Assembly: GCA_021789495.1 (NCBI GenBank)
Contig: JAJYJM010000011.1
Span: 1 to 57,361 of the forward strand
Direction: 5' to 3'
Length of the DNA: 57,361 nucleotides
Origin: Nitrospirota bacterium
GTDB taxonomy: Bacteria; Nitrospirota; JACRHJ01
Shown: positions 3,568 through 9,469 of the stretch, piece after piece
Position numbering within the stretch: the first letter of the stretch is position 1
Layout of the letters: each line of letters opens with the position of its first letter
The notes under the pieces: model-generated
The model's input: the letters and a program-made list of their open reading frames with translations, nothing else
What the model was told of the DNA's origin: nothing
Database searches by the model: none
Position numbers and translations under genes: made by a program

Positions 3568-4701
3568 TTAATTAATATTTATTCCCGTTTCCGTAACCTT
3601 CACGGGTTTCGCCATCCGCGCTGGTATGCCGAACTTCGCGGCGGCGGCTGGGGTGAAGAGCCGGTAATAAAGGACGGCCCTGGCGCGGGCGGCTCCCTTC
3701 GGGATGTCGTATGTCAGTGTCCGCGTCTCGCCTGTTTTTATCCTTGAATCGACGGCCTTTTCGGCCATCCAGGGGGGCACGCCTTTCTTCATGCCCGCCG
3801 TGAACACGCGCATGAACAGCTCTTTTTGGCCCGGCATGGGAGCGGGACTTGTAAAAATGACTTTCCCGTTTCTGTCGAGGACGTCCACCTTGACATACGC
3901 CGCGCGCATCGGGCTTGTGGACGGGAAATAGTGCGGGTTTTCGTTCTTTATATTTACCAGGAGCTTCCTTGCGTTAGCCGTAAGGGAAAGCGATATTCCC
4001 TTTTTCAACATCTGCCTGTCGTGTCCGCCGGGGAAGAAATGAGAGTAATGAGATTTTTCGGCGACGCCGAACGTGGAGGTCCCCGGGACTTTCTTCATAT
4101 GACAGGAGATACAGTCCGAACTCCCCTCCATGTCCATGCTGCATATGACCGTCCCCTTGCCGTTTTTCATCTTGCCGTGACAACCAAGGCACATCTCCGA
4201 GGGCGAGGCAAAAGACCACTTGCTTACGGGATGCGGCGCGGAGACCCCGGATACGGCCCCGGCGGATGTCGTGGTCGTGGAGAGCGAGTAGGTGTTGAAA
4301 AGCTTCCCGCCGGACATGCTCTCGACGCCGTGGCAGAACGCGCAGGGGATGCCGGGGACGGACGAATATGCCTCTTTCGCGCCTGAGGCCGGTCTACCGG
4401 CGGCGGCGGGGCTGTGGCAGCTGCCGCAGAAATAGGGGGCCTTTTTGCCTGCTTTCGCCATGAACTGGGAAAACGCCAGGAAGACGGCGTTATGCGCGGG
4501 GTCGGACTTCCTGTCGGACATGGAGTGCATCGACATGCTCCACTCGTTGTATATGGTTACATGGCAGGGGGCGCAGGAGGCGGAGTCCTTAAATCCCTTG
4601 AAACCCGCCGGGAGCTTGTGGGCGAGCGCGCCGGCAGGAATCATTAAAAGCAGGAAAAAAGCAAAAAATACCCTCTGCAACGCAAGCTTCGGTTTTTTCA
4701 T
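3568..4701 (-). CDS. Secreted pentaheme c-type cytochrome
   Basis: A 377-aa protein with a clear signal peptide (residues 1-27, ending PAGALA). It has five CxxCH haem-attachment motifs: CAPCH (43-47), CGSCH (92-96), CAFCH (120-124), CLGCH (about 170) and CISCH (about 200). Several additional histidines could be distal haem ligands. The C-terminal 150 residues lack cysteines and look like a beta-rich domain. The architecture resembles the cytochrome c-554/NrfB-type multihaem proteins used in periplasmic electron transfer; the redox partner is unknown. A CCGGTCTACCGG repeat lies in frame in the linker after the second haem (AAAGRPASG). The start overlaps the stop of the upstream zinc-ribbon gene (TGATG), so the two are translationally coupled. 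Confidence 0.85.
   Translation of the reverse strand: MKKPKLALQRVFFAFFLLLMIPAGALAHKLPAGFKGFKDSASCAPCHVTIYNEWSMSMHSMSDRKSDPAHNAVFLAFSQFMAKAGKKAPYFCGSCHSPAAAGRPASGAKEAYSSVPGIPCAFCHGVESMSGGKLFNTYSLSTTTTSAGAVSGVSAPHPVSKWSFASPSEMCLGCHGKMKNGKGTVICSMDMEGSSDCISCHMKKVPGTSTFGVAEKSHYSHFFPGGHDRQMLKKGISLSLTANARKLLVNIKNENPHYFPSTSPMRAAYVKVDVLDRNGKVIFTSPAPMPGQKELFMRVFTAGMKKGVPPWMAEKAVDSRIKTGETRTLTYDIPKGAARARAVLYYRLFTPAAAAKFGIPARMAKPVKVTETGININ
4389..4400. repeat. CCGGTCTACCGG repeat inside the cytochrome gene
   Basis: Context on the plus strand is GAGGCCGGTCTACCGGCGGC. The cytochrome gene is on the minus strand, so the element is read as part of AGRPASG between haem motifs two and three. Another member of the dispersed palindrome family. 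Confidence 0.6.
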
Positions 4702-4976
4702 CAGCCGTCGGTCTCCTTTTTTTCTATCAGCACCCTGTCTCCGGGGCGACTCATCTCCCTGAATTCCGGCATGATCTCGCCCGCGAGAGCATAATAGCTC
4801 CTCTGGTTCTTTATGAACTTCTCGGATGCCTCGTCGTAGAGCTTATCGTAGAGCGTGGAGCCGCACGTGGGGCAGGTGATTACGGCGTGTCCCCTTTCGT
4901 CGTAGCATAGAAAGGACATGACGTGCGCTCCGCAGAACCTGCAAGGCGTTATGATAAGTTCGGGACAATTGACCAT
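4701..4976 (-). CDS. Small two-CxxC zinc-ribbon protein
   Basis: A 91-aa protein with CRFCG near residue 12 and CPTCG near residue 37, a spacing typical of a zinc ribbon. I recognise no named family. The start is ATG 4976 (MVNCPELIITP). Longer readings upstream begin at a TTG and would run into the promoter region of the divergent antiporter gene. Its stop codon overlaps the cytochrome start by one base (TGATG). Co-translation suggests a role with the cytochrome, perhaps in assembly or sensing, but that is inference. Confidence 0.6.
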   Translation of the reverse strand: MVNCPELIITPCRFCGAHVMSFLCYDERGHAVITCPTCGSTLYDKLYDEASEKFIKNQRSYYALAGEIMPEFREMSRPGDRVLIEKKETDG

Positions 4977-5080
4977 GCCCTCAAGTCTATCACGAAAAAA
5001 ACTCCGGTTCAACGTCAAAAAATCTTTTGCATACTTTCGAAATATGGTATCTATAGGGGGATACAACGGGAGATAACTCT

Positions 5081-6295
5081 ATGGAAGCGGTCGATTTTTT
5101 CCTGAGGCTGGCCCTTATACTGGTGTCCGCGCGCATCGCCGCCGAGATCTTCGCCCGCATGGGGCTTCCCGCAGTGATAGGCGAGGTTGCGGCGGGGGTG
5201 ATAATCGGGCCTGGCGCCTTGGGGCTTATAGGTGCGGACTCGATATTCGTCCTGCTCGGCAATATCGGCGTAATACTGCTTCTGTTCCAGGTAGGCATGG
5301 AGACGGACGTCGGGAAGCTTGTCGCCGTTGGAACGCAGTCCGCCCTTGTCGCGGTGACTGGCGTCCTGCTGCCGTTTGCCGCGGCCTACCTTGCAAGCGA
5401 GCACATCTTCGGCATGACGCGGGGCGGCGCCATGTTCGTGGGCGGGACGCTTGTGGCGACCAGCATAGGGATCACGCTTCGGGTGTTGAGGGACCTGAAG
5501 GCCGACAGGGGCCATGTCGCCAGGGTGGTTCTCGGCGCGGCAATCATAGACGACGTAATAGGCGTCATTGTGCTCGCGTTTCTTATCCAGTACAGCCGGC
5601 ATAAAGGGAGCGTCGAACTTTTGCCGGCGCTGAAGCTCCTTGGTTTTATGGCCGTTTTCCTGGGCGCCGCACCGGTAATAGGCCCGGCGATCGAACGGCT
5701 CCTTTCCCGCGTTTACGGTATGAGCCGCACGCAGGGCATGGTTTCGACAATTATCGTTTCGCTCATACTTCTCCTGGCCGCCGCATCCAATGGACTGGGC
5801 GCGCCCGACATCATGGGCGGTTTCGCCGCGGGCCTGATGCTTAGCGGAAATCCCGCGTTCGGGATCAAGAAAAGCGGGGCGGAGAAGGCCGCGTTCAGCA
5901 TTGCCGCCGACGCGGAGAAGAAGATAACCCCCATTGGCGAGCTCTTCATCCCGATATTCTTCGTGATGGTCGGCGCTTCCGTCGACCTGAGGGCCATAGA
6001 TTTCCGTTCTCCCGGTTTCTGGGAGTTTGCCGTAGTCATAACCGCGATAGCCATGGCGGCAAAGCTCATGGCGGGCATCTGGGTAAAAGGGCGGATTCGT
6101 GACAAAATCGCCGCCGGGTTCGCCATGGCGCCCAGGGGAGAGGTCGGGCTTATTTTCGCCAAGACGGGCCTCGGCTTCAGAATTTTCGACCAGACCACAT
6201 ACGCCTCGGTGATTTTCGTCGTCGCCATGACAACGCTACTGGCCCCGCTTCTGCTCAGGCCGCTGATGGAGGAAAAGGGGCCAATTCCCGAATAG
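5081..6295 (+). CDS. Cation:proton antiporter (CPA2/Kef-type)
   Basis: A 404-aa inner-membrane protein with about twelve hydrophobic segments. The CPA2 family signatures are seen in the N-terminal repeat (GLPAVIGEVAAGVIIGPGAL) and in the DDVIGVIVLAFL segment, where the aspartate pair binds the ion. The protein ends after the membrane domain, so the C-terminal TrkA-N regulatory domain of KefB/KefC is missing. It exchanges Na+ or K+ for protons; the ion cannot be told from sequence. The gene diverges from the zinc-ribbon/cytochrome pair. Confidence 0.85.
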   Translation: MEAVDFFLRLALILVSARIAAEIFARMGLPAVIGEVAAGVIIGPGALGLIGADSIFVLLGNIGVILLLFQVGMETDVGKLVAVGTQSALVAVTGVLLPFAAAYLASEHIFGMTRGGAMFVGGTLVATSIGITLRVLRDLKADRGHVARVVLGAAIIDDVIGVIVLAFLIQYSRHKGSVELLPALKLLGFMAVFLGAAPVIGPAIERLLSRVYGMSRTQGMVSTIIVSLILLLAAASNGLGAPDIMGGFAAGLMLSGNPAFGIKKSGAEKAAFSIAADAEKKITPIGELFIPIFFVMVGASVDLRAIDFRSPGFWEFAVVITAIAMAAKLMAGIWVKGRIRDKIAAGFAMAPRGEVGLIFAKTGLGFRIFDQTTYASVIFVVAMTTLLAPLLLRPLMEEKGPIPE

Positions 6296-6330
6296 ACGGA
6301 TTTTTTGAGTGTCTGATTAATTTCGTCTGC

Positions 6331-6351
6331 TATAATCTATATAAAAAGGAG
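6331..6351 (+). promoter_or_regulatory. -10 box and ribosome binding site for the ferritin-like gene
   Basis: TATAAT at 6331-6336 followed by AAAAGGAG at 6344-6351, 9 nt before the ATG at 6361. No convincing -35 lies at the usual distance (the best is TTGAGT with a 20-nt spacer). The leader would be very short. Confidence 0.5.
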
Positions 6352-6360
6352 CCTTGACTT

Positions 6361-6663
6361 ATGCCATACGCATCTCATGAAAACGAGGACAAGCTGAGCG
6401 AACATACGAAGGAGCTTCACAGGGCGTTTCAGTCGATAGTAGAGGAGCTTGAGGCGGTGGACTGGTACCAGGCGAGGATAGATGCGACCGGGGACGAGGA
6501 ACTGCGGGCGATACTTGCGCATAACCGGGACGAGGAGAAGGAGCACGCCTCCATGCTCCTTGAGTGGGTGCGCAGGAATGACCCGGCCTTCGCCAAAGAG
6601 ATGGCGTCGTTTCTGTTCAAGGAGGGCGCAAGGATAACGGAGATTGAGGAAAAAAGATCCTAA
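6361..6663 (+). CDS. Encapsulated-ferritin-like protein (EncFtn family), orphan
   Basis: A 100-aa two-helix ferritin-like protein that matches the EncFtn family (iron-oxidising cargo of encapsulin compartments, as in Rhodospirillum rubrum). The hallmark segments EELEAVDWY (28-36) and AILAHNRDEEKEHA (50-63) are intact. By alignment from memory, Glu29, Glu59 and His62 correspond to the ferroxidase ligands and Tyr36 to the conserved tyrosine. EncFtn works as a decamer of dimers with the iron site at the subunit interface. Two oddities: the protein ends ITEIEEKRS with no encapsulin-targeting tail (LTVGSL-like), and no encapsulin shell gene lies next to it. Its 3' end overlaps the stop of the convergent HD-GYP gene by 4 nt. 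Confidence 0.8.
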   Translation: MPYASHENEDKLSEHTKELHRAFQSIVEELEAVDWYQARIDATGDEELRAILAHNRDEEKEHASMLLEWVRRNDPAFAKEMASFLFKEGARITEIEEKRS

Positions 6664-8678
6664 TCCGGACTGCCGAGCACGCGGAGGAATACTTCCACCA
6701 TCGCCGGGTCGAACTGCGTCCCGGAGCACCTCTTAAGCTCCGCAATTGCAAGCTCCCTGTCCCGGGCCTTTCGGTAGGGGCGGTCCGCCGTGAAGGAGTC
6801 GAAAAAGTCCGCCACGGATATTATCCTTGCCGCCGGGGGGATTTCCTCGCCTTTAAGGCCGAGCGGATAGCCTTTGCCGTCCCATCTCTCGTGGTGATGC
6901 CGGATGGCGGGTATTATGTCCCTGAACTGCTTTATCGGCGCGAGTATCTCTGCGCCGCGGTCGCAGTGGCCTTTTATTTTCTCGTATTCCTCGTCCGTAA
7001 GCGCCCCGGGCTTGTCGAGCAGGTCGTCCGAGATCCCTATCTTGCCAATATCGTGCAGAAGCCCGGTGAGGCGCAGCATCTCCAATTCATCTTCCGAGAG
7101 GCCTGTCTCTTTCCCTATCTTAAGGGCGTAGCCCGTAACGCGGGCGGAGTGTCCGCGCGTCCAGTGGCTCTTGGCGTCTATCGCCGAGGATAATGCCTGG
7201 ACGGTGCTGAGCAGCATGTCCTCCAGGTCTGATATAAGGCGCGTGTTCTCCAGCGCTATGCCTATCTGGTAGGCCAGTTTCTCGGCCATCGACGTGTCCT
7301 CGAACGTAAAACCGGCCACCCTGCGGCTCCCCAGCCTTATAAGCCCAAGGGCCGCCCCTTTGCTCATTATGGGCACGAGTATCTCCGAGCGTATTGCGGC
7401 GTCTTTGAACACGCCGTCGTGCCTGCACATCTTTTTCTCTTCCATGACGTCCGCCCTGACCATCGGTTTCCCGGAGAGGAACGTGTCGGCGCCGGGCGAG
7501 CCGTCGAGCAGGAACTGCTCGCCTTTTTCAAGCCCCGCGCCCCAACAGCAGCTCACGGAGAGCGTCTTCTCCTCGCCGTTCAGCAGCAGTACGCATCCGG
7601 CATCCGCGGGTATGAGCCTTTTTATCTGGAGCGATACCTTCGAGAGCATCTCCTCCCTGTCGAGCGTCGAGAGGATCATCCTGTCTATTTCGTGCAGGAC
7701 CCGGAGCGCCTCCATGCCCTTCGCCAGTTCAAGCCTTTTTTTCTGTGTCTCCTCGTAGAGGCTCGCGTTCTCGAAAGCGCTCCCCAACTGGGCCGAGATG
7801 CCCTTTATCAGAGCCGGGATGCGGGAATCGCCGTCCGCCTTCCGGATGTTTATTACGAGGAAACCTGCGACGCGCTCCCTGGCCGTTATCGGCGCGATTA
7901 TCAGCTCCTTGAGCCGCAGGTTGGATACGATAAAATCCGGCACCATCCCGTCAAGTTCGTCCGCGCCGAGCATCAGGAGCTTTTTTGTAAGCATAACCTG
8001 CTCGAGCGCGCGGACATCCGTGAGCCTCGTCCTCATCTCCGTCAACACCGAAACTATGCCGTCGCTGCAGGAAACCGCGGCGCCGGGCGAGAGCCTCCCG
8101 TCCGAATCCGCCAGTATTACCGTAGCGCCCTCGAAGCGGATAATGCCTTTCAGCACGCGCAGGACCTTCTCCGCCGTCTCGTTCCAGTTCACCGACGAAG
8201 AGGTTATCTCCGCCATCTTGAGCAGGGCGTTCGATACCTCAAGCTCCGCCTTAAGCGCGCCTTCCGCCTTGTCCCGCTCCATCCTCATGTCGCGGTCAAA
8301 GACGGCTCTTTCCACCGACGGCACGAGCCTTGAGAGCCTGTCCTTCATTACGTAGTCCCAGGCCCCGGCCCTTATGGCCTCGACGGCCATGTCTTCGCTC
8401 GCATCCCCGGAAACCATTATAAGGGGGATGTCGAGCCTTTTCTCCCTTATGAGCTTCAGGGCGGCCTTGCCGATTAACTGCGGCATTTCGTAGTTTGAAA
8501 GCACTACGTCCCAGTCGTCGCCGCGTCCGCCGCTCATGGCCGCGAACATCTCTTCAGGCGTCGAGACCCGCTCCGAATGGACTTCGTACCCGCCTTTCAG
8601 GAGCGTCTCGGCCATACGGGCGGCGTCGTTTTCGGAGCCTTCGACCATCAATACCTTCAGGGCGCGCTTTGGAGTCAT
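6660..8678 (-). CDS. Degenerate receiver, two GAF regions and HD-GYP phosphodiesterase
   Basis: A 672-aa cytoplasmic signalling protein. Residues 1-125 form a response-regulator receiver, followed by two GAF-like regions (about 150-300 and 320-490) and an HD-GYP domain (about 490-665). The HD-GYP part has HDIGKIG and HHERWDGKGYP, the metal-binding and GYP motifs of cyclic-di-GMP phosphodiesterases. In the receiver the phospho-acceptor position reads VVLSNYEMP, with Asn62 where aspartate is expected, and the acidic pair near residue 13 is Glu-Gly. Normal phosphorylation is therefore unlikely. The conserved Ser (IMVSGD) and Lys (VMKDR) remain. The GAF and HD-GYP parts resemble the protein at 33660-35567, so the two may be paralogues. 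Confidence 0.85.
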   Translation of the reverse strand: MTPKRALKVLMVEGSENDAARMAETLLKGGYEVHSERVSTPEEMFAAMSGGRGDDWDVVLSNYEMPQLIGKAALKLIREKRLDIPLIMVSGDASEDMAVEAIRAGAWDYVMKDRLSRLVPSVERAVFDRDMRMERDKAEGALKAELEVSNALLKMAEITSSSVNWNETAEKVLRVLKGIIRFEGATVILADSDGRLSPGAAVSCSDGIVSVLTEMRTRLTDVRALEQVMLTKKLLMLGADELDGMVPDFIVSNLRLKELIIAPITARERVAGFLVINIRKADGDSRIPALIKGISAQLGSAFENASLYEETQKKRLELAKGMEALRVLHEIDRMILSTLDREEMLSKVSLQIKRLIPADAGCVLLLNGEEKTLSVSCCWGAGLEKGEQFLLDGSPGADTFLSGKPMVRADVMEEKKMCRHDGVFKDAAIRSEILVPIMSKGAALGLIRLGSRRVAGFTFEDTSMAEKLAYQIGIALENTRLISDLEDMLLSTVQALSSAIDAKSHWTRGHSARVTGYALKIGKETGLSEDELEMLRLTGLLHDIGKIGISDDLLDKPGALTDEEYEKIKGHCDRGAEILAPIKQFRDIIPAIRHHHERWDGKGYPLGLKGEEIPPAARIISVADFFDSFTADRPYRKARDRELAIAELKRCSGTQFDPAMVEVFLRVLGSPD

Positions 8679-8854: not shown

Positions 8855-9469
8855 ATGCACAAGGTAAAGGAATATAAACTGGAAGGAAAACTGAAAGGCA
8901 TCTCCGACAGGCAGATACAGGAGCACAGGGACGTGCTCTACAAGGGCTACGTGGACAAGCTGAACATGCTTGAGGACGAGATAAAAAACGCAAAAACGGA
9001 AGGTGCGAACCCCACATACGCCCCCATACGCGAGATGAAAAGAGAAGAAATCTACGCCGCGAACGGCGCGTTCCTGCACGAGGCCTATTTCGGGAACCTG
9101 GGAGGCGGAGGCGGCGAGCCGGGCGGGAAGCTGGTGGAATTGATAAAGCAGGAGTGGGGCTCGTTCGACAAGTGGAAGGCGGACATGAAGGCGTCAGGCA
9201 TGAGCGCGCGCGGCTGGGTGGTCATGTGCTGGAGCATGAACGACAACAAGCTCCACAACTACTCCATGGACTTCCACGACATCGGCGCAGTCTGGAACTG
9301 CGTGCCGCTCCTGGTGCTGGACGTATACGAGCACGCCTACTTCATCGACTACGGCACAAAGAGGGCGGCATATCTCGACGCATTCTTCCAGAACATAGAC
9401 TGGAGTGTCGTGGAGAAGCGTCTCCAGACGGCGCTGAAGCTCGAAGAGGCCCTCAGGAAGGCAGCTTAA
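8855..9469 (+). CDS. Superoxide dismutase, Fe/Mn family
   Basis: A 204-aa SodFM protein that converts superoxide to peroxide and oxygen. The four metal ligands align to His24 (QEHRD), His75 (AFLHEAYF), Asp156 and His160 (DVYEHAYF). The C-terminal WNCVPLLVLDVYEHAYF segment is typical. The usual HHxxHHxxYV cluster around the first ligand is reduced to EHRDVLYKGYV, so the second-sphere histidines are absent. This looks like a divergent SodFM subfamily, and metal preference cannot be predicted. No signal peptide, so it is cytoplasmic. The gene starts 5 nt before the next one begins on its far side and may be cotranscribed with leuC. Confidence 0.85.
   Translation: MHKVKEYKLEGKLKGISDRQIQEHRDVLYKGYVDKLNMLEDEIKNAKTEGANPTYAPIREMKREEIYAANGAFLHEAYFGNLGGGGGEPGGKLVELIKQEWGSFDKWKADMKASGMSARGWVVMCWSMNDNKLHNYSMDFHDIGAVWNCVPLLVLDVYEHAYFIDYGTKRAAYLDAFFQNIDWSVVEKRLQTALKLEEALRKAA

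What the first reader, a model, noticed from the sequence alone, without database searches (positions are those of the whole stretch)
6361..6663. Orphan EncFtn with intact ferroxidase ligands, no targeting tail and no encapsulin nearby
EncFtn proteins are cargo of encapsulin nanocompartments, normally encoded directly upstream of the shell. Here Glu29, Glu59, His62 and Tyr36 are kept, but the C-terminus stops at EKRS and no shell gene is adjacent. It may work free in the cytosol, or its shell may be encoded elsewhere. It is close to a superoxide dismutase gene, which suggests iron/oxidative stress handling.
Basis: partly seen in the sequence, partly recalled or inferred. Interest (0 to 1): 0.58.

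Follow-up and report, generated by a model that had tools for sequence, protein, structure and literature searches.

The report
Shell-free encapsulin-type ferritin
This gene encodes a small iron-oxidising protein of a type famous for working inside a protein shell, but here, as in most of its closest relatives, neither the docking tail nor any shell gene exists, so it most likely works free in the cell; the type was already known, and the genome comparisons here bear on a question about it that was left open.

Summary
Window 6361-6663 (+) encodes a 100-aa EncFtn (PF22277, E 8.9e-38) with all ferroxidase ligands and no targeting tail. Its own genome (97% complete) and all congeners searched lack an encapsulin. 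The stop codon is real: the C-terminus is the same in congeners, and the convergent HD-GYP gene ends there.

It belongs to a class already in print, 'Non-EncFtn' (2016) or 's-FLP' (PDB 3k6c). A 2024 review left open whether s-FLPs are encapsulated and listed a putative targeting peptide. I tested this on whole genomes. Among genomes of the 80 closest relatives (79 searchable), 74 of 75 with a tail-less gene have no encapsulin; the exception has a separate tail-bearing EncFtn beside its shell. In 274 Gammaproteobacteria, long EncFtn and shell almost coincide (14 shell genomes, all with a long gene; one long gene without a shell), while tail-less genes occur in 65 genomes, 61 of them shell-free. 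In 395 genomes of the window's phylum all 14 strong EncFtn genes are tail-less.

Best explanation: a free cytosolic ferroxidase ring that limits Fe(II)/peroxide chemistry. Gene order next to SOD is kept in three congeners; some relatives sit in a rubrerythrin/RFO/DUF3501 cluster. A new member of a known kind.

The parts
6361..6663 (+). Tail-less EncFtn (s-FLP / 'Non-EncFtn'), 100 aa; ferroxidase ligands E29, Y36, E59, H62; entry site E28/E31; exit site H54/E58/E61
6328..6351 (+). Extended -10-like TGCTATAAT (6328-6336) and AAGGAG ribosome-binding-site-like stretch (6346-6351) in front of the gene; by eye only
   Evidence: the -10-like stretch is also present in congener L005; the promoter scan, which asks for a -35 box, found none
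6660..8678 (-). Convergent response regulator - GAF - HD-GYP gene whose 3' end overlaps the EncFtn stop by 4 bp; conserved in congeners
8855..9469 (+). Fe/Mn superoxide dismutase; the order EncFtn - HD-GYP - SOD is kept in G002, G003 and G004
5081..6295 (+). Na+/H+ exchanger-family gene 65 bp upstream; no match in the congener stretches examined, so not a stable partner
4701..5066 (-). Short conserved ORF with no Pfam match (CXXC-type, by eye), divergent from EncFtn and kept in congeners

Best explanation
The gene encodes a shell-free EncFtn. Shown here: the predicted fold, all catalytic, entry and exit residues, the absence of a targeting tail, the absence of an encapsulin in its genome and congeners, purifying selection, and membership of a large class of tail-less EncFtn genes whose distribution does not follow encapsulin. 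Inferred from R. rubrum EncFtn biochemistry: two subunits build a symmetric di-iron centre, Fe(II) drives assembly of an annular decamer, and the ring oxidises Fe(II) with O2 or H2O2 and releases Fe(III) at its outer rim. Inferred further: because no shell mineralises the product, it is not a bulk iron store. It is a cytosolic ferroxidase/peroxide sink that keeps Fe(II) from Fenton chemistry, holding few ions or passing Fe(III) on, for instance to the cage-type ferritin encoded elsewhere in the same genome.
For: EncFtn identity and sites. The AF2 model has mean pLDDT 92.5 and matches 5da5 at TM 0.83/0.90 and 3k6c at 0.81/0.89. No shell in its own genome, in 61 genomes, own and relatives, or, over the cut-off, in 392 of 395 phylum genomes. 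Nine of the ten metal-site positions counted are invariant in 160 of 160 sequences, tail-less and long alike (the tenth, a Trp, in 158), so the ferroxidase path is under full constraint without a shell. dN/dS in the genus is 0.05-0.25. Tail-less genes versus shell: 74 of 75 genomes have no shell and 61 of 65 in an independent class sample; the five exceptions in these two tests each have another EncFtn beside the shell. In 274 genomes the association of short EncFtn with shell is nil (Fisher p 0.75) and that of long EncFtn with shell nearly perfect (p 1e-22). Stress link: gene order to SOD kept in the genus; 8 of 60 relatives with enough flank lie in one-strand order rubrerythrin - Fe-S oxidoreductase - EncFtn - DUF3501, a cluster described as peroxide defence (passages of PMC5114695). 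A cage ferritin is present on another contig (PF00210, 111 bits). Free R. rubrum EncFtn is a ferroxidase that does not mineralise iron (abstract and passages of PMC5012862).
Against: No function was measured. Isolated EncFtn makes insoluble Fe(III) precipitates and aggregates in vitro, so a free ferroxidase ring would need a sink that is not identified. G669 in the same phylum carries a tail-less EncFtn and, far away, a divergent encapsulin-like gene without another EncFtn beside it. No neighbour is conserved beyond the genus; in the clade mates L027-L029 neither SOD nor rubrerythrin was seen nearby. Decamer formation was not tested.
Confidence: 0.68

Rival explanations
1. It is mainly a peroxide-reducing di-iron enzyme (rubrerythrin-like use) rather than an iron-handling ferroxidase: the ring keeps its irons and turns over H2O2 with electrons from cellular reductants.
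For: Cluster with rubrerythrin and its presumed Fe-S reductase in 8 of 60 relatives; SOD gene order kept in the genus.
Against: Entry and exit iron sites are invariant, which a fixed-cofactor peroxidase would not need. No such cluster in the window; 52 of 60 relatives lack the full cluster.
Confidence: 0.18
2. It is loaded into a shell by an unrecognised signal (the 2024 review's putative peptide LFTD(E/N)KPIAHE, or the window's own C-terminal helix), the shell being unrecognised or encoded elsewhere.
For: Proposed as possible in PMC11202242 (section read; Table 2 passage). The AF2 model gives a short C-terminal helix at 92-99.
Against: 74 of 75 genomes with tail-less genes have no PF04454 shell; 61 of 65 likewise. 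No family 1 or family 2 shell in the window's genome. The window's C-terminus does not match the putative peptide. The clear shells that do exist sit beside a long EncFtn or a probable DyP peroxidase.
Confidence: 0.06
3. The encapsulin gene was missed because the assembly is incomplete.
For: The window's genome is 97.3% complete in 53 contigs.
Against: Four congeners (75-96% complete) also lack it, and shell-linked EncFtn genes have the shell directly next to them, whereas here conserved unrelated genes flank the gene.
Confidence: 0.02
4. It is a decaying leftover of a lost encapsulin system.
For: The clade keeps the start of the linker (GxITEIEE) seen in tail-bearing EncFtn, as if a tail had been lost.
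Against: dN/dS 0.05-0.25; invariant metal sites; tail-less relatives in a well-supported clade with names from several phyla.
Confidence: 0.03

Closest known systems
s-FLP / 'Non-EncFtn' (PDB 3k6c, NE0167 of Nitrosomonas europaea; He et al. 2016, PMC5012862; review PMC11202242)
   Same: Same fold and ferroxidase residues, same length class (91-103 aa), no targeting peptide, usually no shell in the genome.
   Different: Different C-terminus (EGARITEIEEKRS instead of TDKPIAHK-like). The window, its congeners, an Abyssobacteria, an Aminicenantes and a 'Clostridiales' sequence form a supported group of their own (95/91). NE0167 is known as a structure that the review calls unpublished.
Encapsulated ferritin EncFtn / FLP-TP (R. 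rubrum Rru_A0973, H. ochraceum)
   Same: Core 59% (R. rubrum) and 50% (H. ochraceum) identical in the structure match, same metal sites.
   Different: Those carry a long linker and a GSL-type targeting peptide and go with an encapsulin gene; this one has neither.
Rubrerythrin (aerobic type with RFO and DUF3501; PMC5114695)
   Same: Di-iron helical-bundle chemistry and, in some relatives of the window protein, the same gene cluster.
   Different: Rubrerythrin is a four-helix single chain of another family (PF02915); the window gene is a two-helix half-ferritin and has no such cluster around it.

Membership tests
EncFtn-like (PF22277) | Profile match over the gathering score | tested here: met
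   128.4 bits against a cut-off of 27
EncFtn-like (PF22277) | Ferroxidase ligands E32, Y39, E62, H65 (R. rubrum numbering), entry E31/E34, exit H57/E61/E64 | tested here: met
   E29, Y36, E59, H62; E28/E31; H54/E58/E61
EncFtn-like (PF22277) | Annular decamer | not testable with these tools
   Only the monomer was modelled; the related s-FLP 3k6c is described as a decamer in PMC11202242
TIGR04535 encapsulin-associated ferritin-like protein | Score over NCBI's curated cut-off | tested here: not met
   121.1 bits against 125, just below
Encapsulated ferritin (encapsulin cargo) | C-terminal targeting peptide | tested here: not met
   Ends ...GARITEIEEKRS; the same kind of end in congeners
Encapsulated ferritin (encapsulin cargo) | Encapsulin gene adjacent or elsewhere in the genome | tested here: not met
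   PF04454 and PF19307 absent from the own genome at E<=10; controls ring, though for PF19307 only one and below its cut-off
s-FLP / Non-EncFtn | Short EncFtn without long linker or targeting peptide | tested here: met
   100 aa, no tail
s-FLP / Non-EncFtn | Putative C-terminal peptide LFTD(E/N)KPIAHE (review, Table 2) | tested here: not met
   Window has LFKEGARITEIEEKRS; the review marks the peptide as putative, so it is not a settled defining feature
s-FLP / Non-EncFtn | Common branch with the NE0167 group | tested here: inconclusive
   88 columns only; the window's clade is supported, but its place among short and long forms is open
s-FLP / Non-EncFtn | Ferroxidase activity free of a shell | not testable with these tools
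   Needs an assay

The most novel reading that the evidence does not exclude
Shell-free EncFtn is not a degenerate cargo but a separate cytosolic iron-oxidising system, commoner in the samples examined than the encapsulated one. It forms two or more lineages (NE0167-type, and the window's Nitrospirota/Aminicenantes/Abyssobacteria type) and is wired to superoxide and peroxide defence. The encapsulated iron store would then be the specialised offshoot, made by adding a tail and a shell to a working free ferroxidase, or the window's clade a reversal by losing the tail.
Probability: 0.4. Interest if true: 0.6.

Novelty: new member of a known kind. Interest (0 to 1): 0.42.

Why it matters
In the papers seen here EncFtn is treated mainly as encapsulin cargo, and a 2024 review left open whether the short tail-less forms are encapsulated. 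The whole-genome counts here say that they rarely share a genome with a shell and, when they do, nearly always a different EncFtn sits beside it. How a cell handles the Fe(III) made by a ferroxidase ring with no cage becomes a sharp, testable question, and the genomes that hold both forms (Reyranella G069; G153, G334, G373, G384) are natural comparisons.

Tried and rejected
Hidden tail by sequencing error: rejected. Encapsulin elsewhere: rejected. Operon with the upstream Na+/H+ exchanger: rejected, since no match was found in the congener stretches examined; in one congener another transporter-like ORF lies there (named by eye as ArsB/NhaD-like). Operon with SOD: rejected, since a convergent HD-GYP gene lies between. 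Sigma-70 promoter scan: nothing found. A neighbourhood search over the 80 named relatives gave mostly unshared genes; its two largest clusters (47 and 26 loci) look like antisense ORFs of EncFtn itself. My first regular expression for targeting peptides was too strict and flagged 8 of 16 long genes. By eye, 14 of 16 end in a GSL-, GDL-, GPL-, GNL- or GKP-type tail, one (L179) is fused to part of a shell, and one (L201) has a Lys/Ala-rich tail. L081 lies beside a shell but shows no clear tail in its frame. The distant PF22277 matches in the phylum (weaker than E 1e-9) were left out of the counts as another group. In the class sample the weaker rows (E > 1e-11) were left out.

Full report
OBSERVATION. 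The ORF at 6361-6663 (+) is 100 aa. It matches PF22277 EncFtn-like at E 8.9e-38 and falls just under NCBI's encapsulin-associated model TIGR04535 (121.1 bits against 125). PDB relatives are R. rubrum EncFtn (5da5, E 9.5e-30) and N. europaea NE0167 (3k6c, E 3.3e-29). In R. rubrum numbering (+3), E32, Y39, E62 and H65 are kept, as are the entry pair E31/E34 and the exit triple H57/E61/E64. The AF2 model (mean pLDDT 92.5; helices 14-42, 46-73, 75-84, 92-99) matches 5da5 at TM 0.83/0.90 and 3k6c at 0.81/0.89.

NO TAIL, NO SHELL. The own genome (2.08 Mb, 97.3% complete) has no PF04454 and no PF19307 match at E<=10. Of 61 genomes (own and 60 relatives), 0 have PF04454. Four of five genomes of the genus have the gene, one with two copies; the fifth is 75% complete. 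The congener proteins are 82-95% identical, and the three full-length congener reads end K[RS]S; the second G004 copy is cut by its contig end. dN/dS is 0.05-0.25. The HD-GYP gene converges on the stop with a 4-bp overlap and is conserved. The order EncFtn - HD-GYP - SOD - LeuC - LeuD is kept in G002, G003 and one G004 contig.

WHAT CLASS IT IS. He et al. 2016 (PMC5012862; [quoted passage not shown] A 2024 review (PMC11202242; section 3 read whole and other passages) calls them s-FLP. [quoted passage not shown] A library search for 'Non-EncFtn' returned only the 2016 paper and one for 'NE0167' only the review; three further searches were seen as listings only apart from the papers named here. 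Other wordings were not exhausted, and most subscription papers and all bioRxiv preprints are not held.

TEST 1, CLOSEST NAMED RELATIVES. A scan of genome contigs kept the best 80 of 521 confirmed loci. I read all 80 ORFs. Four lie beside an encapsulin (L035, L077, L081, L085; 116-129 aa); the other 76 are 91-101 aa without a clear targeting peptide and without a shell in the locus (L089 lacks its first residue at the contig end). Whole-genome PF04454 searches covered 79 of the 80 genomes (L101 not held): 4 of 4 with the long form have a shell, and 1 of 75 with the short form (L033, Reyranella, G069) has one. In that genome a separate 128-aa EncFtn ending ...GSLGIGSLRRATGPVAK precedes the shell. 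Many of these genomes are MAGs of unstated completeness. Two of the 75 (L025, L026) are the window's own genus.

TEST 2, INDEPENDENT SAMPLE. In 274 genomes drawn from one class (that of Marichromatium, G087), 81 strong EncFtn genes (E < 1e-30) lie in 76 genomes and all were read. PF04454 occurs in 14 of 274. Long genes (113 aa or more): 16, of which 15 are in the 14 shell genomes and 1 (L201, Lys/Ala-rich tail) in a shell-less genome. Short genes (91-103 aa): 65 in 65 genomes, 61 shell-less; the 4 others (G153, G334, G373, G384) each also have a long EncFtn gene, in G334 a fusion to part of a shell. Fisher: long gene against shell p 1e-22; short gene against shell p 0.75. Three genomes (G087, G072, G080) are in both tests.

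TEST 3, OWN PHYLUM. Of 395 genomes, 13 have a strong EncFtn (14 genes), all tail-less (95-100 aa where complete). PF04454 occurs in 3 of 395. Two (G518, G553) have no PF22277 match, and their shells lie next to an ORF ending in a GSLGIGSLK tail, which I take for a DyP peroxidase by eye. The third (G669) has a divergent 313-aa Linocin-like protein (76.8 bits) about 1.6 Mb from its short EncFtn. I count G669 as a result against a clean rule.

SITES AND PHYLOGENY. In 160 EncFtn sequences (140 short, 20 long) nine of ten metal-site positions are invariant; the tenth (Trp) holds in 158. A 68-row tree, built on 88 columns from a selection of these rows, puts the window, three congener rows, Abyssobacteria L027, Aminicenantes L028 and 'Clostridiales' L029 in one supported clade (95/91), all tail-less. 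Short and long labels need 6 changes on the tree (bootstrap range 5-7), and starred branches force at least 2. The window's clade keeps the G-I-T-E-I-E linker start typical of long forms (positions 89-96), so tail loss is possible; the root is unknown.

HOW IT LIKELY WORKS. Free R. rubrum EncFtn oxidises iron but cannot mineralise it, forms decamers on iron binding and precipitates Fe(III). By inference the window protein does the oxidation step free in the cytosol. The own genome also has a PF00210 cage-type ferritin (111 bits; C46) and three rubrerythrin-type proteins that could take iron or peroxide. In 8 of 60 relatives with enough flank the EncFtn gene lies between the Fe-S oxidoreductase (RFO) and DUF3501 of a rubrerythrin cluster on one strand. 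The paper that described that cluster (PMC5114695, passages seen) has no occurrence of 'encapsul'. This supports a role beside peroxide defence. It is seen in relatives, not in the window.

VERDICT. Observation confirmed; interpretation supported. It is a new member of the s-FLP / Non-EncFtn kind, in a clade outside the NE0167 group. The added value is the genome-wide evidence that this kind is shell-independent.

Noticed in passing
L030, L044, L046, L053, L054, L061, L069, L088 (around the EncFtn gene): Tail-less EncFtn sits inside a rubrerythrin - Fe-S oxidoreductase (RFO) - EncFtn - DUF3501 cluster, all on one strand.
   Followed up: partly
L107:269-655 and L105 (G069, Reyranella): One genome with both a tail-less EncFtn and a separate tail-bearing EncFtn beside its encapsulin: a natural comparison of the two forms.
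   Followed up: partly
L179 (G334:C227:5300-6400): EncFtn fused in frame to the C-terminal half of an encapsulin shell (248 aa); could be a deletion or an assembly error.
   Followed up: no
L201 (G213:C20): 122-aa EncFtn with a Lys/Ala/Pro-rich tail that is not a targeting peptide, in a genome without a shell.
   Followed up: no
L237:946-1887 (G669): Divergent 313-aa Linocin_M18-like (encapsulin-like) protein in the window's phylum, beside unrelated genes.
   Followed up: no
L006-L012, L221-L234: A second, distant group of EncFtn-like proteins (about 97-117 aa, acidic ends in some) is widespread in the window's phylum, where shells are nearly absent.
   Followed up: no
L016 and L017 (G004): Two EncFtn copies in one MAG on short contigs, with and without a transporter-like gene upstream; duplication or strain mixture.
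   Followed up: no
L028 and L029, around 9989: L029 is titled Clostridiales but shares the FBPase-like - NUDIX-like - EncFtn - MraZ-like order (names by eye) with Aminicenantes L028, so its label may be wrong.
   Followed up: no
L085:10354-13037: A tail-bearing EncFtn and its encapsulin also have an Fe/Mn SOD-like ORF about 1 kb beyond the shell gene, an echo of the EncFtn/SOD proximity in the window.
   Followed up: no
window 3568-4701 (-): Multihaem cytochrome c (Cytochrome_C554) gene near EncFtn, kept in congeners G002, G003 and G004.
   Followed up: no
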